Assembly (NCBI GenBank): GCA_937944405.1
Contig: CALDYR010000013.1
Location: forward strand, 1 to 61,643
Source of the DNA: an uncultured Pirellulaceae bacterium
GTDB taxonomy: Bacteria > Planctomycetota > Planctomycetia > Pirellulales > Pirellulaceae
DNA length: 61,643 nucleotides
Direction: 5' to 3'
The translations under genes and the position numbers were made by a program. Positions 25,998-57,614 of this stretch are shown piece after piece; the stretch's first letter is position 1; each line of letters begins with the position of its first letter. A model generated the notes under the pieces. It had not been told where the DNA came from. It did not search any database and was given only the letters and a program-made list of their open reading frames with translations.

Positions 25998-28900
25998 ATG
26001 AACACTTCGACGCTGAACGAACTATCGCCCAACCAGCGGGCACTGCTGAAAATTCGAGACCTCAAACGACAGGTTAACGAACTCAAAGCAGAAAACGCAC
26101 AGTCGTCTTATGGTGGCGAAATCGCGATTGTCTCCATGGCGTGCCGATTCCCACGCACCGCCAACACGCCCGAAGCCTTCTGGCGGTCGCTGGTGGACCA
26201 AACCGATGAAGTCAGCAACATTCCCGACGATCGTTGGGATCTCGCGGCGTTCTTCGACGATGACCCTGAGACGTTGGGAAAAATGTATGCCTCCAAAGGT
26301 GTTTTCTTGGACGACATCGACAAAATGGATCCTGAGTTCTTCGGGATTTCGCCGCGCGAGGCGACTTGGGTCGACCCACAACAGCGCCTGTTGATGGAGG
26401 TCGGTTACGAAGCCATCGAACGCGCGGGGTGGACCGCAGAAAAGATCGCCGAAACCACTGGCGTCTTCATTGGGTGGATGCACAACGACTACCAGAACGA
26501 AGCCAGTGATTCTTTCCTGAACCTCAACCCCTACATCGCCACCGGTGCCGCAGGGAGCTTCCTCAGCGGCAGGTTGGCCTATTACTTGGGCTTGCAAGGG
26601 CCTTCGATCGCGATCGACACGGCCTGTTCTTCATCTTTGGTGGCCCTGCACCTGGCCTGCCAAAGTCTGCAACGACGGGACTGCGACCAAGCGCTCGTTG
26701 GCGGCGTTAACGCGATCTGTTCCCCGACAACCAACATCCTAACGTGCAAACTCAAAGCCCTCTCACCCAGCGGTCACTCGCGCGCCTTTGACGCTGCGGC
26801 CGACGGTTATCTGCGCGGTGAAGGCTGCGGGGTGGTCACGCTCAAACGACTACAAGACGCCCAGAACGACGGCGATTCGGTACTGGGAATCATCCGAGGC
26901 ACCGCGGTGGGGCACAACGGTTTCAGCAGCGGGCTGACCGCGCCCAACCCCAAGGCTCAAGAAAAGGTCATCCGCGCGGCGCTCGCAAGGGCGCGCGTTT
27001 CTCCCGATGAAGTCTCTTATTTAGAAGCCCACGGCACTGGCACCGAACTGGGCGATCCAATCGAAATGCAAGCCGCCGCCGCAGCCCTCGCCGGTCAACG
27101 TAACCGCGATAACCCGCTGCTGGTCGGTTCGGTGAAAACCAACATCGGCCACTTAGAAGCCGCCGCCGGGATGGCCGGGCTGATTAAAGTATTGCTCGCG
27201 ATGCAACGCGGGCAAATCCCTGGCCAGCTGAATTTCGAAACGCCCAACCCCCATATCGCATGGGACAAAATCCCGGTGAAAGTGCTGACCGATCTGACCT
27301 CGTGGCCCCAAACACAAAACCGCATCGCGGGCGTAAGTGCGTTTGGCATGAGCGGCACCAACGCGCACGTCATCATCGAAGCCCCCCGCCACAGACGCGT
27401 TGCCAACGGTACCGTCTTTCCGGCAAGTGATGCGACACCGGTCTCTGACCTACGCCCTGCAACGAACGACCAACCGACGAAATCAGCGCCCCGTGCTTCG
27501 ACGCTCAATTACGTGATTCCAATCTCCGGACGGACTCCCGGAGCCATTCAAGCGCTTGCTGAATCTTACCAGCGATTTTTAGAAGGGAATCCAGAGACCA
27601 GCGTCACTGACTTCGCCTTTACCACCGCCGTTGGCCGAAAACACTTCGAACACCGCGCCGCCATCGTTGCTCACGACCACACCACCGCGATTGCGGGACT
27701 CAAACGCATCGCGCGCGGCATCGCCGATGAGACCACTTTCGGTGGCCATCACCGCAAGCAACCAAAAATTGGCTGGCAATTCACAGGACAGGGTTCCCAG
27801 CACATCGGGATGGGAAGGTCTCTATATCAAACCTATCCCGTTTTCCGCGCCGCGATTGACGCCTGCGACGCCCAAATGACCGAACTGAGGAACGAGTCTC
27901 TGATCGAGGTCATCTTCGGCGACGGGCAGCATATCGATGACACGCGCTGGACTCAACCGGCGATTTTCTCCATCCAAATGGGCTTGGTCAAATTGCTCAA
28001 CAGCTGGGGCCTGACTCCGGACATTGTCATGGGGCACAGCGTGGGCCAGTACGCTGCGGCCTGCGTTGCGGGAATTTTAAGCTGGGAAGATGGACTGACC
28101 CTGATCAGCCATCGCGGTCGGTTAATCGGAGATCTGCCGCGTTTAGGGGCAATGCTGGCCGTGTTTGCCCAACCCCAAACGGTCACCCAAACAGCCGATA
28201 AATTGGGTTTGTCGGTCGCCGCAATCAACGGCACTCACGTCGTGCTCAGCGGCCCTCAATCCATCATCGAACAAACCGAAATTGAATTCGCCAACCAATC
28301 GGTGCGCACCAAACGTTTGGCAACTTCCCACGCCTTTCACAGCGCACTGATGGATCCGGTGTTAGAACCATTCGCTGAAATTGCCAACGGCGTCACGTAT
28401 CGTCGCCCGCAACTACCGTTGATCTGCAACGTCACCGGCGAATTACTAGCGGTGGACAGGGTCTTGGACGGTCAATACTGGGCCAATCATATTCGCGCCG
28501 CGGTTCAATATGCGCCCAGTGTCATCACGGCGGAACAGTTTGGGTGCGCGACACTGTTAGAAATTGGCCCCCAAGCCACACTGACTCGGATGGCGACCGC
28601 CGCGTGGCAACAGGACAACGGCCGATTGGTCGCGTGTTTGCAACGTGACGTGGATGACGGACTGTCGATTCAATCGGCTGTCGCGCGGATGTACACGCAT
28701 GGTGTCGTCACGAATTTTGAAACGATGCACAGGGGCCATGGCGGGCAACGCATCACGCTACCTACCTACCCCTTTGAACGTCGTCGTTTTTGGGGGCCCG
28801 ACAAACCGCGCGCCGCCCATGCCCAACACCACACCGCCCACCCTTCGTTGGGTTCTCCAGTTTCGCTGGCCGGGGCCAGTAATGAAACTCGTTTCGAAAC

Positions 28901-31900
28901 CTTCATCGAACCCGACAGCCCATCCTGGTTGCCAGACCACGAAGTGATGAATCAAGTCGTCATGCCCGGTGCCGCGTTTGTTGAATTGGCCTTGGCGGCG
29001 ACCGAAATGGCGGAACTCCAAGACGTCAAATTCGAACAACCGCTGCGCCCGACAAACCGTACCGCGATGCAAACGGTGGTCAAAACCGATGGGGACAAAA
29101 TCCGCCGCATCGAAACGTTTACCCGCCCTGCGGAATCCAGTGTTTGGACACGCCATTTCACCGCCAGTTCGAAATCCATTCCAACCATCCCCGATCGCGC
29201 TAACCGGCCCAAGGTGTCACTGGAACAGTTGCAGGCCCAGCCAAGCGAAAAAGTTTCTGCCGAAGCGTTTTACTCAGGTATGGCAACGCTTGGTTTGAAC
29301 TATGGACCGGACTTTCAAACCGTCCAAACTTTAGCGATCAACGAAGAAGGCGTACTGGCGACCCTAGCAACCCAAACCGATATTCGCGGCTATTTGATTC
29401 CACCGCCGCTGCTGGATGGGGCTATCCACTGTCTTGCGGTCGGTCTATTAGAGGAAGACGGCGATTCACTGTTTCTGCCGGTAGGAATGAAACGCGTTAA
29501 ACTCTACGCGCCGGTGCAAAGCGAATTGATCTGCCACGCTAAATGGACGCAACCCGAAGGCGAGTTTCGCGCCGCCGACCTGACGCTGATGGATGCCGAA
29601 GGTCAAGTCGTTGGTGAAATTGAATCCCTGGAAGTTCAACAGATTAACCGGTCCGCGTTGCGGCAAATCAACGGCAGTGGTAGCGACCGGTTGCTGTACC
29701 AAATGCAGTGGCTGCCCTACCGTCTTCCCGCCCCCAGCGACACCAAAGGGGACTGGTTAATCGTCGGCAACTTGAACACAGTTACCGAAAGCCTGATTCA
29801 GGCCGGACGCCGTGTTACCTCGGTCAACCTCGATGAGGTGGACTGGGGCCAACTGATCAACGCTGACAAACCACCGGCGGGAATCTTATGGGATTTTTCC
29901 GGTAACACGAACACTGATTCGGTGGATCAAAAAACGCGTCTGCATTGCGAAGGGATTCTCGCGTTGACCAAGACATTGGCCGATAAAGGGATCCGACGGA
30001 TTGAATGCGGGATGCAGTTGCTGACTCGCAATGCAGTCGACATCGGCAACGGCGAGAACGTCGATCCGGCACAGACACAGTTTTGGGGACTGGGGCGCGT
30101 GATAGGTGCGGAGCAACCGGAGTTCCGCTGCCGAATGATTGACGTTGATGAATTCACTGACGTCACTGGCGCAGCGCTGTTTGATTTCTTGACCACCGAA
30201 ACCAAGGAAAACCAATTCGCGATCCGAAACGGCCAGTACTTTGTGACGCGCCTTAAACAGGCAAACCTACCTAACGACTTGCCGCCGTTTTCAGCCTCCC
30301 CGGATGCTGCCTATTTGATTACCGGTGGTTTGGGAATGCTGGGTCGGCAAGCGGCGCTGTGGTTGGCCAAACACGGAGCCGGGCAAGTGGTTTTGGTGTC
30401 ACGCCGGAAACCGGATGAAGCGGCTCAGACATTTTTGGATTCGATTTCAGAATTAGGCTGCACCGTTACCGCAGAATCGGCAGACTTTAGTGACCATTTG
30501 AGCGTCGAGTCGCTACTGGCGCGGTTTGGCAACCAGTGGAAACCACTCAAAGGTGTTATTCACGCCGCGGGTGTTTTAGACGACGGATTGATCGGCGATC
30601 AGACTTGGCCACGATTCGAAAACGTGCTCGCCCCCAAGATTCACGGTGGGCGTTTGCTGCATGAATTTACGCTCGACCTTGCGCTTGATTTCTTTGTGCT
30701 CTATTCGTCGGCGGCGTCGGTACTTGGTTCGCCGGGACAAAGCAATTACGCAACCGGAAATGCTTACTTGGATGGGCTTGCGTTCCATCGTCGTTCGATC
30801 GGACTACCCGCGACGAGCATCAATTGGGGGCCTTGGACTGAAGGTATGGCCGCTGATGAACGCATCGCCAAACGTCTGGCAATGCAAGGCATCACTGCGT
30901 TGACGGTCGACGAAGCACACGACGCCATGGAAAAAATGATCGTCGGTGATCTTGTGCAAACCACGGTCATCGACGTCGATTGGCGCCGGATGGTGATGGG
31001 ATTGGGCAGCGAAACCCCCAGCCTATTAGAAGGGCTCGCGCCTGCTCGGCGACGCGCCCAAAGCGGTGATTCGGAGTTCGTGGCAAAGCTTAAAAAGATG
31101 CAGCCCGGTCCTGCCCGAGAGCTGATGGTCAGCACCATCGGCCAGCAACTCCAAACTATTCTTTCGACCCCAGAACTGCCTCAAACCGATCGCCCGTTAA
31201 TCGAACTTGGGCTCGACTCCTTGATGGCGGTCGAATTCGGAACTCAGTTACAGATGATGTTAGGTGATCAGTTTGTTGTCGCGCCCACGATGCTATTTGA
31301 TCATCCGACGGTCGACGCCATTTCGGACCACGTGTTGGAACTGGTCGGCGGAGCAGACGCCCAAACCGATGGACCAGATCAGATCGCTGGTGAAAGTAAG
31401 GGACAATCCTCGGAAACGTCGACAGTTCTCAGGGCGCGTGAAGATATCGCGATCATCGGCATGAGCTGCCAGTTTCCGGGGGCCGATAACGTCGAAGCGT
31501 TTTGGGAAAACTTATTAAACGGAGTCGATTCTGTTGGTGAAATTCCGGCAGGCCGATGGGATGTTGATCAGTTTTACTCAAAGGATCGACAACCCGGAAA
31601 GATGTACACAAAAGAGGGCGGTTTTTTAGAAAACATCGGCGATTTTGATGCTCCGTTTTTCAACATCGACCCGATGGAGGCGCGTTGGATCGACCCTCAA
31701 CATCGGATGTTGTTGGAAAACAGTTACACCGCACTAGAGAACGCGGGAATCGCAACGGCGCCCTTGGTCGACAACAACGTCGGGGTGTTCATGGGCATCA
31801 TGGGACAGGATTACGCGTTTCTGCCCCGACTGGAAAACCCGGAAATAGTCGCCGCGTTTCAGGGGGCTGGACTTTCGCACAGCGCAGGAGTGGGCAGGAT

Positions 31901-33788
31901 CAGTTATGTATTCGGATTCCAAGGCCCCAGCGTGGCGGTCGATACCGCCAGCAGCAGTTCTTTAGTCGCACTGTATCAGGCGATGCGCAGCTTGCAGGAG
32001 GGCAATTGCAACTTAGCCCTTGCTGGCGGCGTGAACGCAATTTTAGCACCTATCAATTCACTGTTAATGTCTAAAGCCGGTCTACTGTCACCCGATGGCC
32101 GCTGTAAGTCGTTCTCCGCATCGGCGGATGGATTTGGTCGAGGTGAAGGCTGTGGCGTGGTGGTGCTAAAACGATTAAGCGATGCTCGGCGCGACGGCGA
32201 CAATGTAGTAGCCGTTGTGCGTGGGGCGGCGGTCAACCACAATGGCTTCAGCAGCGGGATCACGGCGCCCAGCGGCAAAGCGCAATCGCGCGTCATCGCC
32301 GACGCGCTTAAAGACGCTCAAATCGCCCCCAACCAGGTTCAATATCTCGAAGCCCACGGCACCGGCACCGAATATGGCGACCCCATGGAAATCGGCGCCG
32401 CGGCGGCGGTATACGGCAAGGGGCGGGCGCAGAACAACCCGTTGCTGGTGGGGACCGTCAAAGCCAACATCAGCCATCTGGAAGCCGCCGGTGGCGTGTC
32501 GGGGCTGATCAAGACCGCGCTTTGCCTGCATCACGGCGTTATTCCACAACAACTTTACTCTGACCAACCAAGCCCTCACGTACCTTGGAAGCGGTTGGCC
32601 GTAAAAATGATCACCGACCAAACTGATTGGCCTCAAACCGACCAGAGGATCGCGGCGGTAACGGCGCTGGGTTTAGTCGGCACTAACGCTCACGTGGTGC
32701 TCAGTTCTGACTCCAAAGCCGACGACATTGATAAAGAAAATGCTGTTATAAACCGTGACCAGCATCTACTGTTAATCAGCGCGAAACATCAGAACGCATT
32801 ACCAAAAATAGCCGAACGTTTTTTGGATCAGATTAAATCGATTGCGGGATCCGGCAACAGCACTGATTTTGCCAACATCTGTTACACCTCCGCTGTCGGC
32901 CGGAGGCATTTCGATCACCGTTTGGCATTGGTTGTGCCTTCAGCAGAAGCGGCGATTGAGGCACTCCAAACCCAGCGGTGGCAAAATACAACCCCCGCAG
33001 CCCCTGCCGCCAAGAAAGTGCAAAAGGTTGCGTGGCAGTTCAATGACGGTTGGTCGCAAGAATTTGCACGCCAACAAGTCAGCGCGTTATGTGCCGTTGA
33101 GCCCGTTTTTCGGCAAACCATTGAAACGATCGACCAAAGACTGGGCGGTGCTGACGCGTGGCAGCGGATTGCCCAGTACGCCTACCACGCTGGATTGGCG
33201 AAGCTATGGGAATCTTGGGGGGTTGAACCCGATGTGTGCATCGGATGGGGGGCAAGCCACTATGCAGCGGCCGCCCGTGCGGGGGTGATGTGTTGGTTTG
33301 ATGGGGCTGAGATCGTCGATCAGCGGCGAGAGTTAATGACCGCCGCGACGGGCAAATCCGCCGCCGAGATATCCGATTTACTGGACGAGTTTGAGTCGTT
33401 TGCGGACCGGTTTAATTTTTACCCGCCCAATCGAGCTTTAATTTGTACCGTCAGCGGCGAAGACGTGCCGATGCACCGGTCGCTCGGTGGCGGTTATTGG
33501 CGGGAGCATGTTTTCGCAGAAAGTGCTGGCAAAAAAAGCGCCGAAGCGTTGGCTTCGTTAAGTTGCGACTCCGTCATGCAGTTCAGTGGCGACGATGCGA
33601 TGCGTACCGATTTGTCTTGGAACAGCGTTGAGACCCTCTACAATGCGGTCGGAAAATTTTACCAAGCCGGCGGTTGGATTGATTGGACGGCCTTTTACGC
33701 CGATCGCGACTTTCGGAAAACGACACTACCGAACTATCCGTTTGACAGAAAGCGCTACTGGATCACGGAGATAGACCGGCACCAGTAG
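25998..33788 (+). CDS. Type I polyketide synthase KS-AT-DH-KR-ACP-KS(Ser)-AT(relic)
   Basis: 2596 aa. Residues 1-35 form a docking-like helix. KS1 (about 41-463): Cys210 in DTACSSSL, His345 in [12 protein letters not shown], His385 in TNIGHLE, all intact. AT1 (593-900): Ser681 in GHSVGQ, and HAFH at 778-781, which predicts malonyl-CoA. DH (940-1230): His981 in [13 protein letters not shown], with Asn where HxxxGxxxxP has Gly, and Asp1140 in LLDGAIH. KR: GGLGMLG at 1443-1449, LDD at 1527-1529 (B-type stereochemistry predicted), Ser1571, Tyr1584 and Asn1588. ACP: Ser1741 in [10 protein letters not shown]2 (1814-2235): Ser1985 replaces Cys in DTASSSSL, but His2120 and His2160 remain. AT2 (2340-2590): GHSxG has become GWGAS, and the ferredoxin-like subdomain and HAFH are missing; only the [12 protein letters not shown] linker marks its end. 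There is no enoyl reductase, thioesterase or reductase domain. The first five domains have 6-methylsalicylate-synthase-like order. Two halogenase-like genes follow. Confidence 0.94.
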
Positions 33789-33865
33789 GAAGCTTAATGA
33801 GGAAACGGAAACTCGACTCCACAAACCGACGGCGGTTGTCTTGCGGCCGACAGAATTAGAAAAAT

Positions 33866-35485
33866 ATGATTGCGAATAACAACCAATACGACGTGGCAAT
33901 TCTTGGCGGAGGTCTCGCGGGACTGACTTTAGCAAAGCAATTGCTGATGCTAGATCCGGCAATACGTATCGCGGTGATCGAAAAACGGTCTTTCCCGGTC
34001 AACGAAGCGGCGCACAAGGTCGGTGAGTCCACCGTCGAAATTGGAGCCCATTATTTTGCCGAAGTGCTGAATCTCAAAAAACACCTGACCGATCAACAGC
34101 TACCTAAATTTGGGTTGCGGTTTTTCTTCAAAGACGCTGACCAAGCGATCAATGAAGGCACTGAGGTTGGCGGCAGCGAATTTTTCGCCGCTCCAAGCTA
34201 CCAAGTTGACCGTGGACGGTTAGAAAACTTTTTGGCCCAAGAGGTTGAGGGAATGGGGGCGACACTGATCGCCGGTTGTCGTGTCAAAGACATCGAACTG
34301 ACCTCGGCGGAGGCCTCTACCCAACCCCCTCATATCGTTTCTTTTGTGCGAAATGGTGAACCTCAATCAGTACAAAGTCGTTGGGTTGTGGACGCCAGCG
34401 GGAGAGCCAGTTTCATTAAACGGAAACTCGACCTTTCCGAAGACCTCGACCACGACGTCAACGCGGTTTGGTTTCGCATCGACGCCAATATCCAGATCGA
34501 CCAATGGTGCGATTGCCCGGATTGGCGTTCGCAAATCGGAAAAGTGCCACGCCGGTGGCTTAGTACGAACCACCTGATGGGCGAAGGGTATTGGGTTTGG
34601 TTGATTCCACTGGCGACCGGATCAACCAGCATCGGCATCGTTGCAGATCCAGAAATTCACAGTCTACGAGACATGAACTCGTTTGGAAAAGCGATGGATT
34701 GGTTGGCCGAACATGAACCTCAGTGTGCCGACGCGATCCAACGGCACCGGGAAAAACGGCAAGACTTTCTGGCGATCAAAAAACTGTCGCGCGGAACACG
34801 CCAAGTATTTTCGACAGATCGTTGGGGACTGACGGGTGAAGCGGCTGCATTTTTGGACCCTTTTTATTCCCCAGGCAGTGACTTTATCGCGATCGGCAAC
34901 ACGATGATCGCGAAACTAATCCAAGAAGATCGCGCCGGACGTTCGATTGGCCAATTGGCTCCCACGCTGCAAAGTGTTTACTTGACGCTGTTCCAAAATA
35001 ACTTGTTGACCTACCGCGATCAGTATCCGATCTTTGGCAATCCCCGGATCATGGCGTTAAAGTTTGTGTGGGATTATGCGATCTACTGGGGTTTCCCGGC
35101 GCTGTTGTATTTCAACGATAAACTGACCGACGTAGCTTTCATCCAGTCGCTGTCTAAAGGCATCGAAGAGATGCGGGAAATGAATTTAAAGATGCAAGAA
35201 TTCTTCCGAGCTTGGTACGAAATCGAAAAAACTGGCCACGCGGATCCCGCGTTTGTTGATCAAAATGAGATCGACGTCATGACCCGCATGAATCGAGAAC
35301 TCAAAGAGAAACTTGCAGATGCCGATTTGCGAAAACGATTTTTTGGCAACGTCGAAATCTGCAAAAATTTAATGGCTGAAATGATGCAGCGGGTGAAGCG
35401 ATACCAGCCCGATGTTGAAGTCACCAACACCGCAAATCCGGGCGAGTATTATTTGGATCGGACTTTTGAAACGTTGAACATTTAG
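33866..35485 (+). CDS. Flavin-dependent halogenase-like protein (copy 1)
   Basis: 539 aa. The FAD-binding N-terminus reads DVAILGGGLAGLTLAKQL (GxGxxG region), VIEKRSFP and VGESTVEIGAH. The halogenase signature WxWxIP is present as YWVWLIP near residue 247, and a second FAD motif is GLTGEAAAFLDPFYSPGSDF. Lys in LPKFGLRFFF (about residue 82) corresponds in position to the catalytic lysine of the superfamily (inferred from memory, not aligned). These enzymes oxidise chloride or bromide with FADH2 and O2; the separate flavin reductase is not in the window. The C-terminal 150 residues are helical. It starts 77 nt after the PKS and is paralogous to the next gene. Confidence 0.85.
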   Translation: MIANNNQYDVAILGGGLAGLTLAKQLLMLDPAIRIAVIEKRSFPVNEAAHKVGESTVEIGAHYFAEVLNLKKHLTDQQLPKFGLRFFFKDADQAINEGTEVGGSEFFAAPSYQVDRGRLENFLAQEVEGMGATLIAGCRVKDIELTSAEASTQPPHIVSFVRNGEPQSVQSRWVVDASGRASFIKRKLDLSEDLDHDVNAVWFRIDANIQIDQWCDCPDWRSQIGKVPRRWLSTNHLMGEGYWVWLIPLATGSTSIGIVADPEIHSLRDMNSFGKAMDWLAEHEPQCADAIQRHREKRQDFLAIKKLSRGTRQVFSTDRWGLTGEAAAFLDPFYSPGSDFIAIGNTMIAKLIQEDRAGRSIGQLAPTLQSVYLTLFQNNLLTYRDQYPIFGNPRIMALKFVWDYAIYWGFPALLYFNDKLTDVAFIQSLSKGIEEMREMNLKMQEFFRAWYEIEKTGHADPAFVDQNEIDVMTRMNRELKEKLADADLRKRFFGNVEICKNLMAEMMQRVKRYQPDVEVTNTANPGEYYLDRTFETLNI

Positions 35486-35576
35486 GCCGGCCATAAAACG
35501 TAGCGGCCCGATAGGCGAACAGATGGGTCAACCGCAACCACACCGACGGCAACTGCAAGCATGAAAACAAAGCACA

Positions 35577-37217
35577 ATGAATAAAAAATCAGACGTAACG
35601 ATTCTTGGTGGCGGGTTGGCCGGGCTGTCGCTGGCCCTTCAACTTCGGCAATCTTCTCCTGCGGCTTCGATTACGGTGCTGGAGAAACGCGCCCACCCGG
35701 TTCCCGAAGCGGCCCACAAGGTCGGTGAATCGACCGTGGAAGTTGCGGCGCACTACTTCGGCAATGTGCTGGGCTTGAAAGACCATATCCAGCAACAACA
35801 ACTACCCAAACTGGGCCTCCGTTTCTTCTTTCCAGCCGGCGACAATTCACGCATCCAAGACCGATTAGAATTGGGCGGGAAACGTTACGCGCCGGTCCCA
35901 AGTTACCAACTCGATCGTGGCCGGTTCGAAAACCACTTGGCCGATGAATGTCTCAGTAACGGTATCGATTTTTGCCATCAAACGAAAATTGAAAAGGTCG
36001 AGATCACAAAATCTGGCGACCACTGCGTTAAGTTTTCGCAAAACCAACTGCCCGGTCAAATCAATTCAAAGTGGATCGTCGACGCCAGCGGTCGACGAGC
36101 ATTTTTGAAACGGCAGCTTGGGTTGAGCAAAACATCGCCACACGTTTGCAATGCCGCGTGGTTTCGCTTCAGCAAACAAATAAAAATTGACGACTGGTGC
36201 AACGATGCCCGTTGGTCTGCAGGCCATGACGGCAAAACAGCACGGTGGTACAGCACCAATCACTTGATGGGACGGGGGTATTGGGTGTGGATGATTCCGC
36301 TGTCAAGTGGTTCGACCAGCATGGGAATCGTCGCGGCCGAAGAATTCCACTCGATTTCCGATTTTAACTCGATGGGAAAAGCGGTTGATTGGCTGGAAAG
36401 GTTTGAACCGCAGTGCGCCGACGCCGTGAAGTCCCATTTAGACCACGTGCAAGACTTCCGCGCAATCAAAAATTACTCCGTGGAAAGCAAACAGGTTTTC
36501 TCAAAACAGCGCTGGGGCATCACGGGCGAAGCGGGCTTTTTCCACGACCCGTTCTATTCGCCCGGTAGCGATTTCATTGCGTTCTCCAACAGCTTTTTAA
36601 CCGATTTAATTCGCCGGGATTTAAACGGAAAAGGCTTTCGGATAAGAGCAATCGCTTATGACAAAATCTACAAAAAATTCTTTTACGGCACTTCGACCGC
36701 GTACCTAGATCAGTATCAAATTTTTGGCAACCCAACAGTAATGCCGGTAAAAATCCTCTGGGACTACCTAGTGTACTGGTCGATCACGGGGTTCATTTTC
36801 ATGCAGGGGCAAATGTGCCACCAGAGGATGTACCTTCGCAACATGACCAAGCTATCGCGACTGGGGAAGATGAATCACTTTATGCAGGACTTCTTCCGTC
36901 AATGGCATCGCGCGACCGAGGGTATCCCGGCCAGTGGATGTATTGATATTTCGCAAATACCGCTGATACGTGAAATGAATCAGCGCCTACTGGACGACAT
37001 GAACCACGGCCAATTCGCCAATCGATTCGGCGACAACCTGTTGCAATTGGAAACCCTTGGCAACGAAATCGTGGCCAACTCGGGGATCGATGTGCAGGTT
37101 CCTTTTCAGCAGTCGGCAAAACCATCGGTCCGACAAAACGCTTTTGAGACCATTTTCGCGTCGGTAAACGGTACAAACGATCCAGTGACCGAAGAAAGAG
37201 ATGCGGCGCTGATTTAG
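35577..37217 (+). CDS. Flavin-dependent halogenase-like protein (copy 2)
   Basis: 546 aa, tandem paralogue of the preceding gene with the same layout: VTILGGGLAGLSLALQLRQ, KVGESTVEVAAHYFGNVLGL, LPKLGLRFFF, the WxWxIP signature as YWVWMIP and GITGEAGFFHDPFYSPGSDF. The two proteins share most motif positions but diverge in the middle and in the C-terminal helical part, so this is an old duplication with possible division of labour (two halogenation sites or two substrates). It begins 91 nt after copy 1. No terminator of clear strength was found behind it. Confidence 0.85.
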   Translation: MNKKSDVTILGGGLAGLSLALQLRQSSPAASITVLEKRAHPVPEAAHKVGESTVEVAAHYFGNVLGLKDHIQQQQLPKLGLRFFFPAGDNSRIQDRLELGGKRYAPVPSYQLDRGRFENHLADECLSNGIDFCHQTKIEKVEITKSGDHCVKFSQNQLPGQINSKWIVDASGRRAFLKRQLGLSKTSPHVCNAAWFRFSKQIKIDDWCNDARWSAGHDGKTARWYSTNHLMGRGYWVWMIPLSSGSTSMGIVAAEEFHSISDFNSMGKAVDWLERFEPQCADAVKSHLDHVQDFRAIKNYSVESKQVFSKQRWGITGEAGFFHDPFYSPGSDFIAFSNSFLTDLIRRDLNGKGFRIRAIAYDKIYKKFFYGTSTAYLDQYQIFGNPTVMPVKILWDYLVYWSITGFIFMQGQMCHQRMYLRNMTKLSRLGKMNHFMQDFFRQWHRATEGIPASGCIDISQIPLIREMNQRLLDDMNHGQFANRFGDNLLQLETLGNEIVANSGIDVQVPFQQSAKPSVRQNAFETIFASVNGTNDPVTEERDAALI

Positions 37218-39291: not shown

Positions 39292-41985
39292 CTACCTGAG
39301 GTCAATCGTGCGAATGGTGACTTCGTCCAAGTATGCCGTGCCGAAACCAGTGAGGTCGAACCGAACGTTGAACTGCCCTTCTTTGTTGACGCTGCGATAG
39401 AGCGTGAACTCTTCCCAGCCTGCGGTGGATGTGACGCGTTCGGCCAACGACCGCCCCCCAAAAGAATCGGCAATCAGCAGACCATCCATATTACCTTGAA
39501 TCGTTCGTGGAACATTGACCCAGCCGTGGACCTGTACCATTTGATGGGGCTGCACTTTCACCGATGGGCTGATGATCCATAGTGGCGATTCTTCGACCAA
39601 GCCCGCCCCCGAAGACGGCGTCACCGTCAGCTTCAGACTCTTGCGGCCCAAAACAACCTGATCATTGGAAAGCTCGACGCGCGTCGACAGGCTTGGCGAG
39701 TCTATACGATGATTTTCCCAGCCCGATCGTTGCATATGTTCAAGACTTTCAAAATCGCCAGCGGGCAATCCGTTTGGATCCCAACCGCCGGCGGCTTTCA
39801 ACTGATCGGTCAATCGCCAGTGCAAGGGAATTAAACTGGCATGGGCCACAAAGGGTGTAGATGTTTTGGACTGAAACAGCCCCAAGGGGCCAACCGCCGT
39901 TTCACGCCGACTGAATCCCAATCGTTCTTCGGTTCGATCAAGAAACTTCGTCGCGGCGTCGCCACTATTCTTTAAAATCAGATCACTGGCAACACGATAC
40001 GCAGTGACCGCCTCGTTGAGCGCGCCACCGAGTTCAGCCGAACCACGCCCCATGCGCGCCATTTGCTGATCGATCAATTGCATGATCGCGATCCACTGTT
40101 GAGAAAGTTCCGACCGCATCTGTTGAATTGGTTGTTTGCCAACGCGTTCAAAAGACTGCGATAGCTGGCTGACGACCAGTGGATCTTGGGTAAAAACGAC
40201 AGCGGTTAAAAATGCGCAATCAGGTATTTGAATTTCGGTTCCGCCCATCGTGCGAACCGATGACAGCAGCTGCAACCGCGTATCGGTCAATTGATAGGCT
40301 CGATCGGTAAACGCCGAAGCGGTGTCGGAGAACGAGATATCTTTCAGCGGTACATCGCCGGCCCAGTATTGTTCGTGATGAGTCGGTCTTTGGATCAGCA
40401 GTAACCGCGAACGACTGGTGTTAAATGCCGTGATTTCCACCGTCGGATCATCGACAGGAATCTCACCCATCATCGCCCCGCCGACGGCCCACGGTTCGAT
40501 CTGTTCAACAAATGCATTCACGAGTTCGATCGTCATCGTTCGCAACCGCGACGCGGGATCGGCTTCATCCAACCGATGCCTAGAACGAAACCGCAATCCT
40601 CGCGCTCCCCCGGTGATCGCTTCGACGACTAAAAATTTAAGCTGCTGAGGTTCGATCGGCGTGGGCGGTGTTTGCTGGGAGATCATACTGACCTGTTCCA
40701 ATAGCGTTTGGGAAAGTTCCGTCTGGATATCCGCCCAAACGGGCTTGCTGGTGGCGATCGTTCGACCGCGTTGCCGAATCCAGTCGCTGTATTGACTGGC
40801 GATGAAACTCGTCCCCAACGGCTGGAGGCCAACCGAGAGAATGTCAACTTGCTGAGCCAACTGAGACCAGTTCGAGGCGACGTTGCCAACGATGGGGCGA
40901 TTTTCACGCAAGTCAGATTCGCGTATTTCGCGTATCCGCTGGGCAACGGTGAGCACGTCGCGTCCAGCCAGTCGCTTCCCTACCGACCAAGCCAGCACGC
41001 GGTCGAACTCGAATCCGATATCAGTCACTCCAATGGACGCTGGCGGCGGACACACAATCCACATATCCAGTCGCTTGGCTTCGGTTAGCTGCGTCGGAGT
41101 CGCGGTGGCGGCAAGTTCGACCGTATTAAAACCAATCGCTTTAAGGAACGCAAAATCTTCTCCGTTATGCTCAATAACCAGCGGAAAAAAAGGCCGTTTG
41201 TTAATCAGCAAAACCGTGCCCTCACGATCGACCAATGAAGGACGTTTGGCAACCGAAGTGATCCCTGCGACGTGGCGAACGTAGGGATCGACAATAGGCG
41301 ACAACGCATGTTTCGATCCAGCAACCTGTTTCACCGGTACAAGCCCATTGACTTTTAGGTCATCGATCTGAACGTCGTGATCGCCGGGACCGCTGTAAAG
41401 GTTGATTACAACCCGGTCGATGTAGGCTTCGCGCGGATCGACATGAGCCCCGTACTTGCGCCGCAAAAACCAGAGCTCTTTCTTCAAAAGCTCTGTTAGA
41501 TCAAAATCGTCTCCGGGAAAACCAAGGGTTTGCCATTGGCCGGTGGTTCGATATCGTTCGCCACTGAGGGTTGTTGTCATCGGCCCACTTGCATCGGGCG
41601 CGATGGTGTGGGGCAAGACGACCCGTACTTGCACTTGGGCACCGGGGCGCGTCGACCTCATTCGCACCACGGGCTTAAGTTCGGGGATGATGTAAGCCTG
41701 CGGAACTTCACAGGACACATAGACGTTGGTGCCGCTGCCGCAACGGAACCGGATCCGTTCAAAGGTGGTAGCGGAACCGTCTTCGGTCTCTTGGTCGCGC
41801 GATTGAATCCACGTTCTGAAATCGATCGCACAATCGCTTTGGTGCCGCTTCAACACGGCGATACCTGCGTCGAAAGCCTCCTCAAACTGCGCAGCAGCAA
41901 AGTCCACCGCACCCGCAATCATTACAATCGCAACGATCACAGATGCGGCCCTGCACAAAATCCAAGTGGCGGCAGAGTTAGTCAT
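39292..41985 (-). CDS. Large secreted protein with TIM-barrel-like and carbohydrate-binding-like regions
   Basis: 897 aa from the ATG at 41983-41985; the upstream in-frame GTG at 42052-42054 would add 23 residues before the signal peptide. Signal region: ILCRAASVIVAIVMIAGAV, cleavage near FAAAQ. Around residues 270-340, GTVLLINKRPFFPLVIEHNG then DFAFLKAIGFNTVELAATA resembles the first strands of a glycosidase-like barrel, but no catalytic acids were recognised. The last 150 residues (GDFESLEHMQRSGWENHRID, later WINVPRT-like segments) resemble a carbohydrate-binding beta-sandwich. No clear function can be given. The preceding PQQ-like gene may be co-transcribed. Confidence 0.6.
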   Translation of the reverse strand: MTNSAATWILCRAASVIVAIVMIAGAVDFAAAQFEEAFDAGIAVLKRHQSDCAIDFRTWIQSRDQETEDGSATTFERIRFRCGSGTNVYVSCEVPQAYIIPELKPVVRMRSTRPGAQVQVRVVLPHTIAPDASGPMTTTLSGERYRTTGQWQTLGFPGDDFDLTELLKKELWFLRRKYGAHVDPREAYIDRVVINLYSGPGDHDVQIDDLKVNGLVPVKQVAGSKHALSPIVDPYVRHVAGITSVAKRPSLVDREGTVLLINKRPFFPLVIEHNGEDFAFLKAIGFNTVELAATATPTQLTEAKRLDMWIVCPPPASIGVTDIGFEFDRVLAWSVGKRLAGRDVLTVAQRIREIRESDLRENRPIVGNVASNWSQLAQQVDILSVGLQPLGTSFIASQYSDWIRQRGRTIATSKPVWADIQTELSQTLLEQVSMISQQTPPTPIEPQQLKFLVVEAITGGARGLRFRSRHRLDEADPASRLRTMTIELVNAFVEQIEPWAVGGAMMGEIPVDDPTVEITAFNTSRSRLLLIQRPTHHEQYWAGDVPLKDISFSDTASAFTDRAYQLTDTRLQLLSSVRTMGGTEIQIPDCAFLTAVVFTQDPLVVSQLSQSFERVGKQPIQQMRSELSQQWIAIMQLIDQQMARMGRGSAELGGALNEAVTAYRVASDLILKNSGDAATKFLDRTEERLGFSRRETAVGPLGLFQSKTSTPFVAHASLIPLHWRLTDQLKAAGGWDPNGLPAGDFESLEHMQRSGWENHRIDSPSLSTRVELSNDQVVLGRKSLKLTVTPSSGAGLVEESPLWIISPSVKVQPHQMVQVHGWVNVPRTIQGNMDGLLIADSFGGRSLAERVTSTAGWEEFTLYRSVNKEGQFNVRFDLTGFGTAYLDEVTIRTIDLR

Positions 41986-42316
41986 TGATTCAGGAGCAAA
42001 ACTTCGCAGAATGGGTTGTTCGGGTACCGGCAACCAGGGGAAAACTTCGTCCACGATGCTTTTATCAACATGCTGAATGTTTCGCTAGAGCAACATCTGT
42101 TGAATTCATACCGCATAACTCGTTTGAGGAAATCATTTGTTTGCCAATAACTCAACACTTTCATTCGGCAAAAACCGCATTTTGGCATTTTTCTTGTGTT
42201 CGCCGGCAGGCTTGGCATTGGCGTTGCAATTGCTTATCGATCGAGACATTGCCCAATCAAAACAAATGTGCCCCACTACTGAAATCTTCCCCAAGTCGCC
42301 CACGAGGAAAGCCAAG

Positions 42317-52761: not shown

Positions 52762-55700
52762 TTATTCCTGTAATCGAAAAGGTCGAAAATGTCCCCGAGC
52801 GGGGTCCCACAGAAAGACGCTCCATAAATACGTCCGGTGTTTCAATTCAAAATTCTGGCGAATGAATTGCTCGAATCGTGCACCTGGGTATTCCCAGCGC
52901 ATATTTTTCCCCCGGGTGCGGAATTTTTCCCGATTGAGTAACACCCACACCCGCCGGCCTCGTGATATTTCGGCAATCAATTGGTCGACGTTACTGACAA
53001 CTTCGCCGCCGCCGTTACGGTCGACCAAAATTCCATCTCGCATCACGGCAAAATCGTACAACAGCGGCAATGCGAGATCGTAATCACATTTACCGCTTTC
53101 GATGTGTGCGCAATGCGTGTGCGGTTCGGTAATCGCAATCCGGTCACCGGGCCGTTGTTGGCTTCTGACCCACCTGACCGCGCCAGTCGAATCGCCAAGT
53201 ATTCGCAATTCATACGAACCTGGAATTCGCCACGGCGACCAACTGGCAATCAATGCGGCCATACAAACCATCACACCAACACCCATCGTCGCTGAGTAAC
53301 GGTTGAGATTATCTGCTTTTGGATAAACAAGGTTGGTTAATGTCGACAACAGCAATCGCATCCCGTCAACTGACAGCAGAATCCAAATCGGCATCAGCCA
53401 GTAAAGATACCGAAAACTAATGTTGGTGACTAACAAATTCGTCATCACGATGCCCGAAACTAAAAACGACAACAGCGCTAGCGCGTTCCGATTTTTTTCG
53501 CGGTACATCAACGGCAACCCTGCCAAGAAAAAGAAACTGGGCACCACGTGCAGACGCGAATACCCCACCAGCATCGACAGCAGGTTCATGGGATACCAAA
53601 AATGGGGCTTCACCGCAGCTTCGATCGATGGAGAAACTCCTTCGGTTCGGGTCAGACAAAGCGTTTTGAACGCCACAAAATCCAATCCGATCAACGCCAC
53701 CACGACGCAGGAAACCAGCATCAAGGTCACATTGCGTTTCCAACCAAGGTCTTTAGCAAACAATAAGTAACCGAACACCAGCGACGGCCCCATCGCGACG
53801 CTGATCTCTTGACTGAGCACCGCACAAAGAAACGCGATCAGTGTCGCCACGCGATGCCACTGGCATTGCCGCGTGACAAATCCAATACAAAACCAATAAA
53901 CCGTCAGCAGCGCGAAGAACTGCTGCATCTGATAAAAACGGATCACATGCCCGGTAAAAATTTGAAACGGGTGGACGCTGACCAAGAGCATCGCCATGAA
54001 CCCTACCCAACGATTGCCCAACAGCCGTGCGCCGCACAAATACGCCAACCACGCCGTTGCGGCCGACCACATAACCGATTGCAATCGCAAACTCCACATA
54101 TTTCCACCCCACGGCCACGCCAGCGCCGCGGTGACGTAGTGAAACATGGGGCTGCGGGTGTAGTACACGTCGTCCGGTACAAAACCGGGGGCGCCCGTTT
54201 CTAAAATCGCCATGATCGCTTGGGTGGATGCATATTCGTCATCATCCAGTGGTTGCAGATCTAATTTATAAGCGCGTAAAAACACGCCCAACAGCAACAC
54301 CCAAACACAAGCGTGAAACCAGACGCGGGTGTGGGGTAAATTACGCAATCCCCCGATCACATCGTGACCATTTTTCCGTAAGTCCTTCAATCCGATGCGG
54401 CCCACGGCGTCGGTCAAACCGACCATCAACGCCGCTCCCAACGCGATCCAAAAAATAATTCGCCACATGCTACCGTCCATCATCCATAATACCTCGTGAC
54501 GCTCGGTCCACGAACATTCCAATAGCAATCCGGCTGTGACGGTGACGGTGGCGGTTAACAGCATCGCGTAAATCTGCTGACAGGTCGTCAACCACAGCCG
54601 ATCGGTACCGATTGCCGATGATGAAATTTTGCGTCTGCGGTCCAAACCCACTGCGACCATCAAAAAGATGCAAATCGACACCAACGTCAACAACCCAACC
54701 TGAATGAGCGTTTCGGGCAGCAAAGCGTCCAATTGTTGAGGGCTAAGCGCGTTACCGCGGTACTGCATTGACGGAATCGATTTTCCAGAACTCAGCACCG
54801 GCCCCAGCATTCTTACCGGCGTTGGTTCATCGGCTGGTGATGATGATTTGGCAACTTGGGCCCGCCAAAGGTCACTGGCGACAAAACCAATGTTGCTTGC
54901 GTCTTTGCCTGTCGCGGCACCGTCGACGGCGATTTGGGTGGGCCAGTTCGCATTGGATTTATCAAGGCAAATGATTTCCAATCGATTGCTGCCGGGGCGT
55001 AATAAATTGGCGATACTGTAACTCAAATACCCACCTTCGGCGGTGTCGTGTTTGAGCGAATTAGGTTGACGGCGTTCGGGAAATAGGTCGGGTGTTTTGG
55101 GAGTTCGACGGGCCTCGGCCAGCGTCCGTTTAGGATCCCACACCCCTGGAGCCTGCGCCCGGTTGTAGGTGCGAATGTACCGAAACGGCGTCAGTTTGGG
55201 TGAAAACGGGTTGCGGAACTCTGCCAAATTCCCGTGACCCTTGCGTGGGGATTCGAACCGTTTACCGATGAAATTGGTGTCCACTTCGTCGGGGTCCAAC
55301 AGTTCCGGTTTAGTCGTCGGATCAAACGAAGAGGCCCGTCCAAAAACCCAATCACCATTGTCTAAATCCGGCGCCTTGGTGGATTTAACGCGCACCAACT
55401 GCCCGTTGATGTGCATTTCATATTGCCGGTTGGCCAGTACACGAATCCATGCTTCATCAACCGGACGGTCGATTTTCCAATCGGCGCTAAACCTCACACC
55501 GGATTTACTGGGCGCCGTGGGGTGCCGCATCCACGACCCGGAAAACGCCTTGGTGTAAATTTCTTCAGGATGCGATCGGTATCCGCCACTGGCCGGACCA
55601 TCAGTTGTCGTGGCTTGCCGCCATTGCTTATCCCAATAGTGCAACTGGGTCCAGTCCTTCAATTGCGGGCCGAGGGGCGCTGGTTCGGCACGCCAGGTGG

Positions 55701-56283
55701 TGTCGCTACGAAGTGGAATCACGCGACCGTCATACAATTGAATTTCGCCAACGAAGCTAACCCGAGCAGGAGCCGACCGGGATTCGAGCTCGATCGCGAT
55801 CACGTTTTTGCCTACTTCCAGCGCTGACGTTAATTCGATGTAACTGGGAAGACGCCACGAATCGTGCCCGTCCCATTGATATTCACGAGGAAAATTGAGC
55901 GCCATCGCCGGCTCTTGCGGCAGCAAAACCTGGCCTTTTTCACTGGTGCCATTTTGGAAGGGGCGCGTCGGACGCCACAGAAAAAAACGTCCCAAGGGGT
56001 TCTGATTAACACTGATCTCGAATGCGTCGGCGGCCACGATCTTGATCCAAGCGTGCTTGACGTCCGACGTAAGATCAAATCGTTTGCGAAAATAGCCAGC
56101 ATGCGATGCGGGACCGGGGGCGCAAATCCAATCGGCCGGGTAAGCCGTCGGCCGTAGGGGATGGTTGGCCTGCAATCGGTAACGCGCTGTCGCGTACCCG
56201 ATCGTCACCACAAACGCGACCATCATCAGTAAAAAGAAACTGATGTTCAGACCAATTCTATTTTTTTCATGTTCGCCGGTCAT
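52762..56283 (-). CDS. GT-C-type glycosyltransferase with N-terminal carbohydrate-binding-like domains
   Basis: 1173 aa from the ATG at 56281-56283, which overlaps the preceding stop as ATGA; an upstream in-frame start at 56313 lies inside the neighbour. A membrane anchor (about residues 13-35) is followed by some 450 residues of beta-sandwich, probably two copies of a galactose-binding/GH2-like jelly roll (AWIKIVAADAFEISVNQNPL; AWIRVLANRQYEMHINGQLV). From about 540 on, ten or so hydrophobic segments form a GT39/83-like membrane region with the luminal acidic motif DDDEYAS. Such enzymes transfer sugar from a polyprenyl-phosphate donor. The joining of lectin-like domains to a GT-C enzyme is unusual. 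The acceptor is unknown. Confidence 0.78.
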   Translation of the reverse strand: MTGEHEKNRIGLNISFFLLMMVAFVVTIGYATARYRLQANHPLRPTAYPADWICAPGPASHAGYFRKRFDLTSDVKHAWIKIVAADAFEISVNQNPLGRFFLWRPTRPFQNGTSEKGQVLLPQEPAMALNFPREYQWDGHDSWRLPSYIELTSALEVGKNVIAIELESRSAPARVSFVGEIQLYDGRVIPLRSDTTWRAEPAPLGPQLKDWTQLHYWDKQWRQATTTDGPASGGYRSHPEEIYTKAFSGSWMRHPTAPSKSGVRFSADWKIDRPVDEAWIRVLANRQYEMHINGQLVRVKSTKAPDLDNGDWVFGRASSFDPTTKPELLDPDEVDTNFIGKRFESPRKGHGNLAEFRNPFSPKLTPFRYIRTYNRAQAPGVWDPKRTLAEARRTPKTPDLFPERRQPNSLKHDTAEGGYLSYSIANLLRPGSNRLEIICLDKSNANWPTQIAVDGAATGKDASNIGFVASDLWRAQVAKSSSPADEPTPVRMLGPVLSSGKSIPSMQYRGNALSPQQLDALLPETLIQVGLLTLVSICIFLMVAVGLDRRRKISSSAIGTDRLWLTTCQQIYAMLLTATVTVTAGLLLECSWTERHEVLWMMDGSMWRIIFWIALGAALMVGLTDAVGRIGLKDLRKNGHDVIGGLRNLPHTRVWFHACVWVLLLGVFLRAYKLDLQPLDDDEYASTQAIMAILETGAPGFVPDDVYYTRSPMFHYVTAALAWPWGGNMWSLRLQSVMWSAATAWLAYLCGARLLGNRWVGFMAMLLVSVHPFQIFTGHVIRFYQMQQFFALLTVYWFCIGFVTRQCQWHRVATLIAFLCAVLSQEISVAMGPSLVFGYLLFAKDLGWKRNVTLMLVSCVVVALIGLDFVAFKTLCLTRTEGVSPSIEAAVKPHFWYPMNLLSMLVGYSRLHVVPSFFFLAGLPLMYREKNRNALALLSFLVSGIVMTNLLVTNISFRYLYWLMPIWILLSVDGMRLLLSTLTNLVYPKADNLNRYSATMGVGVMVCMAALIASWSPWRIPGSYELRILGDSTGAVRWVRSQQRPGDRIAITEPHTHCAHIESGKCDYDLALPLLYDFAVMRDGILVDRNGGGEVVSNVDQLIAEISRGRRVWVLLNREKFRTRGKNMRWEYPGARFEQFIRQNFELKHRTYLWSVFLWDPARGHFRPFRLQE

Positions 56284-57614
56284 GGATTCTTCGCACGTGT
56301 TTGAGCAGCCCAAATGGCGTTAGCGTCGGCGGTAAGGCCAGTCGCAGTGGCAGAGTGCTGCTGGGCGACGGCCCGTAAAATCTTTTTCGTGCCAAAATTG
56401 TAATAATTCGACGCACTGTACATCCAGTCTCGCATGGTGTTGACGCGCTCAACGCGCGATTGCCGCAGGCAGGATAACTGCATTAAATAAATCAGTTTGA
56501 CATCGCAGGGTGTCCGCCGCAGGACGTATGTGAATCTTCGCGTAGCGCGTTCAAACCGCGCCGAATTAAAATCTTGAATCGCAAACCGCAGTACCCCACG
56601 TAGCGCTTCACGGCCGATGGCGGGATCGGTGGAAGCGGTCAACGGTTTATAAATCGCGAACGCCTCGTCATAACGGGCGCCGGTTTCCAAACCACGCGCC
56701 CGTTGCAATGCGGCGTAAGGACTGTCGATGCCCAACCGCCGGTCCAACACTCCACGTTGAGAAATGTAATGAGTATCCTGGCCCAACACCGGCAGCAGTT
56801 CTACGGCGCGATCTAAATGTTTTTTTGATTGAGCATAATCGTGTTGGCTGGAGGATTGCGCCGCAGATCGAATTTCTTGGCTGGCGTGGAATGGTCGCGC
56901 CCAACCTCCACACACCGCTACCACTGCGACTATCCCCATCAAGGTAATAGCGCCGCTGACACGTTCGAAGGCCAACCGGCCATCGTGTTGAAACGTCGAC
57001 AGAACCAACAAAAAAGATCCGACGATCGACAATGACCATCCACGTCCAACGAACTGACAAAAGGCATTCGAATAACCCAACCATAGCAACAAATCCTTGG
57101 TCCGGTGCAGACCAATCTCCCATGGTGACCACGAAGGTAAATTCACAACCGCCAGATGACGAGGCGTGTCGACAAAATACGTTTTCGTTCGCCATCCCTT
57201 CGAACCGAATTCCGCGTTCAAAAAGATATCCCCCCCCAGCCAGGTAAGATTATTGTGCTGCATTTGTAACCACGTCGCGTCGGCGGAGATTTGCGGGCTG
57301 CGGATCATAACGAAGTAGGGATACGTCAACGGCAGCAACAGCATCAGGCTGGTGATGAAAGCGCTGCCGGTAGACCAACGGCGTTTCCAAACCCACGATG
57401 CCAACGCTACGATCAAACCAACGGCCACGGCGGCTTTAAAAAACGGCGTGCAACCGGGCGTCGATAACACAATGTCCGCTGGCGACGACGCGCCGATTGC
57501 CGGCGAAACCGGGACACCGAACCAAGGTCCAGTGACTCCGCATACGACCGCTGCGATTCCCGCGCACGTGGTCAAACAATACAGCAATTGATTCAACGAC
57601 CGAAACGGATTCAC
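56280..57614 (-). CDS. Polytopic membrane protein with C-terminal TPR-like region
   Basis: 444 aa. The start is GTG (57612-57614), overlapping the previous gene's stop as GTGA. There are about five hydrophobic segments in residues 10-235 (LLYCLTTCAGIAAVVCGV, AAVAVGLIVALASWVW, ITSLMLLLPLTYPYFVMI, IVGSFLLVLSTF, LMGIVAVVAVCGGW). Residues 250-400 are TPR-like helices (AQSKKHLDRAVELL). It resembles no enzyme; its place between a HlyD-type adaptor and a glycosyltransferase suggests a role in export or modification of a surface component. Confidence 0.7.
   Translation of the reverse strand: MNPFRSLNQLLYCLTTCAGIAAVVCGVTGPWFGVPVSPAIGASSPADIVLSTPGCTPFFKAAVAVGLIVALASWVWKRRWSTGSAFITSLMLLLPLTYPYFVMIRSPQISADATWLQMQHNNLTWLGGDIFLNAEFGSKGWRTKTYFVDTPRHLAVVNLPSWSPWEIGLHRTKDLLLWLGYSNAFCQFVGRGWSLSIVGSFLLVLSTFQHDGRLAFERVSGAITLMGIVAVVAVCGGWARPFHASQEIRSAAQSSSQHDYAQSKKHLDRAVELLPVLGQDTHYISQRGVLDRRLGIDSPYAALQRARGLETGARYDEAFAIYKPLTASTDPAIGREALRGVLRFAIQDFNSARFERATRRFTYVLRRTPCDVKLIYLMQLSCLRQSRVERVNTMRDWMYSASNYYNFGTKKILRAVAQQHSATATGLTADANAIWAAQTRAKNP

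What the first reader, a model, noticed from the sequence alone, without database searches (positions are those of the whole stretch)
25998..37217. Compact polyketide locus: one bimodular-looking PKS plus two tandem halogenase-like flavoproteins
Seen: a 2596-aa KS-AT-DH-KR-ACP-KS-AT protein followed on the same strand by two halogenase paralogues with WxWxIP, within 11.2 kb. Known: KS-AT-DH-KR-ACP is the order in 6-methylsalicylate-type iterative synthases, and phenolic halogenases often decorate such aromatic cores. Inferred: the locus makes a mono- or di-halogenated aromatic (or short polyene) polyketide. No PPTase, thioesterase, flavin reductase or transporter is in the cluster, so it would rely on genes elsewhere. 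I know of no characterised planctomycete pathway with this exact layout.
Basis: partly seen in the sequence, partly recalled or inferred. Interest (0 to 1): 0.82.

Follow-up and report, generated by a model that had tools for sequence, protein, structure and literature searches.

The report
Split halogenated aryl-polyene polyketide locus
A planctomycete bacterium carries one half of a pathway that probably makes a halogen-bearing, coloured chain molecule started from phenylalanine, built by a giant enzyme whose last quarter has lost its usual catalytic residues but has been kept by evolution.

Summary
The three genes are real and where stated. The PKS is not bimodular: KS1-AT1-DH-KR-ACP looks intact, but C-terminal KS2 has Ser for the catalytic Cys and AT2 has Gly for its Ser, in all 18 loci compared, window included. 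KS2 is nonetheless almost as conserved as KS1. In relatives the operon is phenylalanine ammonia-lyase (PAL), AMP-ligase-ACP, PKS, halogenase 1, halogenase 2, in about half with an RND pump nearby. In this genome PAL and ligase-ACP sit on another contig beside a broken RND gene. Ten of ten lyases checked carry the 'FL' PAL signature; ligase and PKS carry matching docking-type ends. Halogenase relatives elsewhere lie mostly near aryl-polyene-type KS/CLF genes (62 of 68 loci). Best reading: a type I PKS, probably iterative, extends a cinnamoyl starter into a halogenated phenyl-polyene; a 6-methylsalicylate-type synthase is unlikely. An iterative type I arylpolyene PKS is already known (celluxanthene, PMC12144888), so this is a new variant. 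The conserved serine-KS/dead-AT tail is the unexplained part. Substrate, iteration, halogenation and product are inferred.

The parts
25998..33788 (+). Type I PKS, 2596 aa, KS1-AT1-DH-KR-ACP-KS2(Ser)-AT2(dead)
25998..26105 (+). N-terminal docking-type helix ([18 protein letters not shown]...)
   Evidence: similar start in the 14 PKS N-termini printed; the name 'class 2 docking' is recalled
26118..27383 (+). KS1, intact Cys (DTACSSS) and His residues
27765..28697 (+). AT1, GHSVG and HAFH (malonyl type; motif meaning recalled)
28833..29672 (+). DH
   Evidence: PF21089 and PF14765; His and Asp motifs, (Gly of the His motif is Asn in the window copy)
30306..30842 (+). KR catalytic part, LDD and Y...N motifs
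31131..31343 (+). ACP, LGLDSL
31434..32708 (+). KS2: Cys replaced by Ser (codon 31950-31952); HGTGT His, Lys and NISHL His kept
33015..33677 (+). AT2, nucleophile Ser replaced by Gly (GWGAS), fast-evolving
33866..35485 (+). Halogenase-like H1 (nearest to relatives in aryl-polyene-type clusters); Lys81 aligns with a Lys of PltA
35577..37217 (+). Halogenase-like H2, a separate old clade

Best explanation
The locus is the elongation-and-tailoring half of a split pathway to a halogenated phenyl-polyene. PAL on contig C78 turns phenylalanine into cinnamate (inferred from the 'FL' signature and similarity to the verified PbPAL). The neighbouring AMP-ligase loads it on its own fused carrier, whose C-terminal tail docks on the PKS N-terminus (inferred from conserved ends). 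KS1-AT1-DH-KR-ACP extends the starter with malonyl units, reducing and dehydrating each time and probably acting iteratively, so the chain becomes a conjugated polyene. H1 and H2 put halogen at two distinct positions while the substrate is probably carrier-bound; with a non-phenolic phenyl ring, at least one halogen may go on the chain. KS2(Ser)-AT2(dead) is kept as a non-condensing domain; its retained His, Lys and His point to decarboxylation or acyl transfer at the Ser, or to partnering KS1 as chain-length control. Shown: gene content, catalytic motifs, conservation, operon in relatives, split here. Inferred: substrate, iteration, halogenation and the role of KS2.
For: PKS+H1+H2 occur together in 18 distinct loci counting the window; in L075 in another arrangement. 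The AMP-ligase-ACP is next to the PKS in 14 of 15 loci where that flank is held, the window being the exception. PAL lies next to the ligase in 10 of 10 loci where that flank is held, not counting C78 of this genome. The class sample gives the same 9 of 397 genomes for H1 and for the lyase. Own genome: lyase and ligase-ACP adjacent on C78. All 10 lyases checked have FL (FL = PAL, YH = TAL in passages of PMC5651878); best structure 9eq5 is PbPAL. Ligase: best structures include feruloyl-CoA synthetase and 4-coumarate ligase. Docking-type ends on the ligases and PKSs printed, this genome's included. Halogenase relatives: 62 of 68 loci outside the type I group have a KS or ApeC-like ORF in the stretch held; L044 and L131 hold KS and PF13723 genes. 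Lys aligned with that of PltA in 18/18 H1, 18/18 H2, 68/68 others. Precedents: type I iterative arylpolyene PKS CexF, polyene PKS RerA.
Against: No product is known. Iteration is not shown: a single condensation would also fit. The ligase is best scored by general long-chain acyl-CoA ligase models and no model reaches its cut-off in the 25 shown; its top structure hit is labelled fatty-acyl-CoA synthase, so an aryl substrate rests on context. The lyase models (PAL, HAL, TAL families) are likewise all below cut-off, and for two relatives the HAL model scores best. No PF01613 flavin reductase was found in this genome. No thioesterase domain was found in the PKS. The cluster is split here and its RND gene is broken, so the copy could be decaying. 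A non-phenolic starter is a poorer substrate for ring halogenation. H1 relatives L038-L042 and L045 lie in stretches without such a PKS. No random-locus control was run for the 62 of 68 figure. KS1 was not placed among iterative reference clades.
Confidence: 0.6

Rival explanations
1. 6-methylsalicylate/orsellinate-type iterative aromatic synthase whose phenol is halogenated.
For: Same KS-AT-DH-KR-ACP order; H1 matches ChlB4, a halogenase I recall from 6-MSA-type chemistry.
Against: Relatives pair the PKS with a lyase and an AMP-ligase-ACP that carry docking-type ends; a C-terminal KS2-AT2 is not part of that layout (recalled); halogenase relatives mostly lie by aryl-polyene-type genes.
Confidence: 0.08
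2. The PKS acts once, not iteratively: cinnamoyl plus one malonyl gives a phenylpentadienoyl unit that KS2/AT2 or another enzyme hands on.
For: KS1's best per-domain score among solved structures is CurL, a modular PKS; docking-type ends are typical of modular lines (recalled); KS2 follows the ACP like a downstream module.
Against: KS2 lacks Cys in 18 of 18; no other KS-bearing ORF was matched in the type I loci. Later modules elsewhere in those genomes were not sought.
Confidence: 0.17
3. H1 and H2 are flavoproteins that oxidise but do not halogenate.
For: Low identity to characterised halogenases (12-22% in the fold alignments listed); no PF01613 reductase; 24 of 68 outside relatives and the H1 of L075 lack a WVWxIP-type motif.
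Against: Both window proteins keep GGGLAG, WVWxIP and the Lys aligned with that of PltA; the first 40 fold matches are halogenases or 3nix, monooxygenases follow; Xanthomonas clusters for brominated pigments contain a halogenase gene (PMC3691225 passages), though I did not compare that gene itself.
Confidence: 0.15
4. In this genome the pathway is a decaying remnant after the operon was broken up.
For: Lyase and ligase on C78, PKS and halogenases on C13, RND reduced to two fragments; genome of 3.95 Mb, smaller than the relatives listed in its family.
Against: All five biosynthetic ORFs are open, near full length and keep the motifs checked; a docking-type tail is kept on the separated ligase.
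Confidence: 0.12

Closest known systems
Celluxanthene iterative type I arylpolyene PKS (cex cluster, PMC12144888; parts 1, 2 and 4 of 4 and passages read)
   Same: Aryl starter, AMP-dependent synthetase, single iterative type I PKS giving a phenyl-polyene
   Different: Cex starter is phenylacetate; cex has two KASIII, a PPTase, a hydrolase and tetronate formation; 'halogen' does not occur in the text. Here a PAL-type starter system, two halogenases, RND pump in several relatives, KS2(Ser)-AT2 tail. CexF's sequence was not compared.
Type II aryl polyene / xanthomonadin clusters (PMC3691225, PMC3949708, PMC8358021; passages read)
   Same: Aryl acid plus AMP ligase, KR and DH polyene logic, a halogenase in several; a KS with a non-condensing KS partner
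   Different: Here one type I protein; [quoted passage not shown] no ApeC-like ORF in the 13 type I loci checked
RerA polyene iPKS (PMC11563203; part 1 of 2 read)
   Same: Iterative type I PKS making conjugated polyenes
   Different: KS-AT-ACP-ACP-KR-DH plus a separate PPTase/TE protein; no aryl starter or halogenase in what I read
Fungal strobilurin PKS (PMC6158276; passages read)
   Same: PAL-derived aryl starter extended by an iterative type I PKS
   Different: Fungal; [quoted passage not shown]

Membership tests
Aryl polyene biosynthesis | Dedicated aryl acid supply and AMP ligase | tested here: met
   lyase and ligase-ACP in the operon of relatives and on C78 here; the ligase's substrate is not shown
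Aryl polyene biosynthesis | KR and DH, no ER, in the synthase | tested here: met
   (KR and DH families; the only reductase names besides KR are weak SDR overlaps of the KR stretch); motifs
Aryl polyene biosynthesis | Stand-alone type II KS-CLF (ApeO-ApeC like) | tested here: not met
   type I protein; no ApeC-like ORF in the 13 type I loci checked
Aryl polyene biosynthesis | Product is an aryl polyene | not testable with these tools
   no chemistry
6-MSA-type iterative aromatic PKS | KS-AT-DH-KR-ACP order | tested here: met
6-MSA-type iterative aromatic PKS | KS in the 6-MSAS clade | not tested
   no reference sequences held
6-MSA-type iterative aromatic PKS | No dedicated aryl starter partner (recalled) | tested here: not met
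Flavin-dependent halogenase | GxGxxG and WxWxIP | tested here: met
Flavin-dependent halogenase | Lys aligned with that of PltA | tested here: met
   (that it is the catalytic Lys is recalled)
Flavin-dependent halogenase | Partner flavin reductase | tested here: inconclusive
   no PF01613 hit in a 93% complete MAG; other reductase families not searched
Flavin-dependent halogenase | Halide incorporation | not testable with these tools
   -
KS-Q/KS-S type decarboxylating KS (for KS2; family features recalled) | Cys replaced; His, Lys and His kept | tested here: met
   Ser in 18 of 18; His, Lys, His invariant in the 15 rows of A2 and kept in L035, L037, L158
KS-Q/KS-S type decarboxylating KS (for KS2; family features recalled) | Loading position with a working AT-ACP after it | tested here: not met
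   KS2 is C-terminal and AT2 has lost its Ser
Chain-length factor (for KS2) | Cys lost | tested here: met
Chain-length factor (for KS2) | Other catalytic residues lost (recalled) or half-size protein (ApeC) | tested here: not met
   full KS by Pfam; His, Lys, His kept
Phenylalanine ammonia-lyase (C78) | MIO ASG and FL selectivity pair | tested here: met
Phenylalanine ammonia-lyase (C78) | Curated PAL model over its cut-off | tested here: not met
   TIGR01226 345 bits against 519; it is best of the eight lyase models listed

The most novel reading that the evidence does not exclude
KS2(Ser)-AT2(dead) is a working, undescribed kind of PKS tail: a serine ketosynthase that no longer condenses but decarboxylates or transfers acyl chains, or pairs with KS1 inside one protein as a chain-length partner, so that a type I protein reproduces the KS-CLF logic of type II aryl-polyene synthases while sharing their halogenase family.
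Probability: 0.35. Interest if true: 0.78.

Novelty: new variant of a known kind. Interest (0 to 1): 0.62.

Why it matters
It would give planctomycetes a concrete halogenated pigment pathway, testable in relatives with complete genomes. It would link the halogenases of type II aryl-polyene clusters to a type I synthase. And it poses a sharp enzymology question: why is a ketosynthase without its cysteine kept almost as strictly as the working one? A planctomycete PAL related to these (PbPAL, 54-60% identical to seven lyases found) is already used in biocatalysis and would gain a likely natural role; its own genome was not recognised among the 170 searched.

Tried and rejected
6-MSA-type aromatic synthase: set aside once lyase and ligase-ACP were found in the relatives' operon. 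Two working modules: rejected on KS2/AT2 motifs. Recent tandem duplication of the halogenases: rejected, H1 and H2 are separate supported clades, and with the midpoint root H1 is nearer to relatives from other phyla (long branches flagged there for L039 and L043). TAL starter: rejected, all 10 lyases checked have FL not YH; the lyase of L201 was not checked for this. Relics of lyase or ligase beside the PKS in the window: only the ACP match and weak hits, the best of them E 0.013. KS2-AT2 model: too weak to use (mean pLDDT 69, pTM 0.49). First genome-contig scan with H1 alone gave nothing; the second, with an alignment, gave at least 554 relatives of which the best 80 were kept and read, so counts from it cover 80 of those. 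The KS tree used 10 plasmid KSs of unknown product, so it shows KS1 and KS2 as separate old clades but does not place KS1 among iterative or modular types; the two other PKSs of this genome dropped out of that tree because the script's motif did not match them. L074 was misaligned (wrong ORF taken) and was read correctly. No random-locus control was run for the KS/CLF neighbourhood count.
Full report
What is there. The window holds a 2596-aa type I PKS (25998-33788, +) followed by two halogenase-like flavoproteins (33866-35485 and 35577-37217, +). Pfam confirms KS-AT-DH-KR-ACP-KS in order, the second AT falling below its cut-off. KS1 (DTACSSS), AT1 (GHSVG, HAFH), DH, KR (LDD, Y...N) and ACP (LGLDSL) look intact. 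KS2 reads DTASSSS and AT2 reads GWGAS in place of GHSxG. So there is one extension module that looks working and a catalytically altered KS-AT tail.

Relatives. H1 relatives at E<=1e-40 occur in 21 of 392 genomes sampled from the phylum and at E<=1e-120 in 9 of 397 from the class, each with a second copy; both counts include this genome. A scan of named genomes kept 80 of at least 554 relatives. Eleven of these (L064-L074) carry PKS-H1-H2 in the window's order; L075 has the same genes in another arrangement. After removing three contigs found twice, 18 distinct loci including the window hold the PKS with H1 and H2 (in L065, L070 and L074 the PKS, and in L072 the H2, is cut by a contig end). 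A 19th, L201, is cut before the halogenases. The AMP-ligase fused to a carrier (PF00501+PF00550) is next to the PKS in 14 of 15 loci where that flank is held; an aromatic ammonia-lyase (PF00221) is next to the ligase in 10 of 10 where held (Pfam was run on two ligases and two lyases of relatives, the rest are by homology). An RND pump gene is matched in the stretches held for 8 of the 18 and in L201.

The split. The window is the one exception: upstream of its PKS lies an RlmA-like methyltransferase gene, and no clear ligase or lyase relic was found. But the same genome has lyase and ligase-ACP side by side on contig C78, with a broken RND gene next to them. Both places are inside contigs, not at their ends. 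Lyase (E<=1e-150) and H1 (E<=1e-120) mark the same 9 of 397 class genomes; in the other 8 they are physically linked and several are of one genus, so this supports belonging together but is not 8 independent events.

Starter. The best solved relative of the C78 lyase is 9eq5, which is PbPAL from Planctomyces brasiliensis (passages of PMC12535398). Passages of PMC5651878 give FL as the PAL and YH as the TAL state and report that their chosen PAL sequences associate with fatty acid and polyketide operons. All 10 lyases checked have FL and the ASG motif. Against this, no curated lyase model reaches its cut-off, and for two relatives the HAL model scores best. The ligase has feruloyl-CoA synthetase and 4-coumarate ligase among its best structures, but also a fatty-acyl-CoA synthase label at the top, and general long-chain acyl ligase models score best. 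The ligases printed end in a helix of the type (L/M)SExEALxELxxEL (on C78: MSQDQVLEELLKEL), and the PKSs start with LSPNKQALLKIRELKQQL-like helices. I recall these as class 2 docking partners; the inference is direct transfer of the starter to KS1.

Halogenases. PDB best hits of H1 are PltA, ChlB4, 5buk (Mpy16) and CmlS; of H2 PltA, 3nix, CmlS, 3e1t. I recall several of these as acting on carrier-bound substrates. The H1 model (pTM 0.83) matches halogenases first. The Lys aligned with that of PltA is kept in 18/18 H1, 18/18 H2 and 68/68 other relatives; a WVWxIP-type motif in 17/18 H1 (not L075), 17/18 H2 (the other is truncated) and 41/68 by one pattern or 44/68 by a looser one. H1 and H2 are separate clades (100/100 and 100/99); H1 groups with relatives from other phyla at 97/91 in a midpoint-rooted tree of 66 proteins (22 of the 68 outside ones put in). 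Among the 68 loci outside the type I group, 58 have a KS ORF, 56 an ApeC-like ORF, 62 either, in the stretch of up to 10 kb each side that was held (no random control). L044, another planctomycete, is a type II aryl-polyene-like cluster with KS, PF13723, KR-like, LolA and MMPL genes; L131 (Pseudoxanthomonas) has KS, PF13723, a glycosyltransferase and an MMPL gene. A halogenase gene is reported in Xanthomonas xanthomonadin clusters, whose pigments carry 0-2 Br (PMC3691225 passages), and in the arcuflavin cluster (PMC3949708 passages); I did not compare those genes themselves. AntiSMASH counts in PMC11588811 list an arylpolyene cluster in 1 of 6 planctomycete genomes (passage); whether it is of this kind I cannot say.

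KS2. Mean pairwise identity across 13 PKSs (one lacks its N-terminus) is 75.9% for KS2, 78.7% for KS1, 56.3% AT1, 49.2% DH, 67.3% KR core, 73.1% ACP, 33.3% AT2. Ser replaces Cys in 18 of 18, and Gly the AT2 Ser in 18 of 18; the two His and the Lys of KS2 are kept. KS1 and KS2 are separate old clades, with the divergent L158 outermost in both. So KS2 was altered before the family radiated and has been kept since. AT2 evolves fast and looks structural. The remaining catalytic set argues against a mere spacer and against a classic chain-length factor, and fits decarboxylation or acyl transfer; none is shown. A structure model was too weak to help.

Reading and novelty. Together these point to cinnamoyl extension to a halogenated phenyl-polyene by a type I PKS. 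An iterative type I arylpolyene PKS exists (celluxanthenes; PMC12144888 parts 1, 2, 4), as does a type I polyene PKS (RerA, part 1 of 2) and a PAL-primed fungal PKS (passages). In the lists returned by searches I saw no paper on this planctomycete lyase/ligase-ACP/PKS/two-halogenase operon or its serine-KS/dead-AT tail. Those lists are capped (25 of 107; 25 of 137; 20 of 24; 15 of 31; none found), were judged by title and start of abstract, and cover open-licence papers only. Hence 'new variant of a known kind'.

Limits. No chemistry; iteration, halogen positions and release are open; no PF01613 flavin reductase was found in the 93%-complete MAG; a PF01648 gene with a 295-aa open frame, Sfp-like by size only, is present on C14.

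Noticed in passing
L168 12841-14200 (own genome contig C78): Broken RND pump gene beside the lyase: only pieces matching residues 547-861 and 917-998 were found, on the opposite strand to the lyase.
   Followed up: partly
L049 (own genome C14 48000-66000): Another large protein with AMP-binding-, KS- and AT-like parts next to a PF01648 (PPTase family) gene; product unknown.
   Followed up: no
L050 (own genome C131): A third large protein with ligase-, KS- and AT-like parts running to the contig end.
   Followed up: no
L044, L046, L043: Planctomycete genomes outside the class hold KS and ApeC-like genes near a relative of H1/H2; L044 looks like a type II aryl-polyene cluster and has a second halogenase-like gene at 4028-5224.
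   Followed up: partly
L038, L039, L041, L042, L045: H1/H2 relatives with no KS-like ORF matched in the 19-20 kb held; function unknown.
   Followed up: no
window 52762-56313 and 39292-42054: Large ORFs (1183 and 920 aa) without any Pfam match at E<=1e-3; the first lies next to an unscanned 444-aa ORF, a HlyD-like protein (57611-59146) and a sigma-54 response regulator (59492-61114).
   Followed up: no
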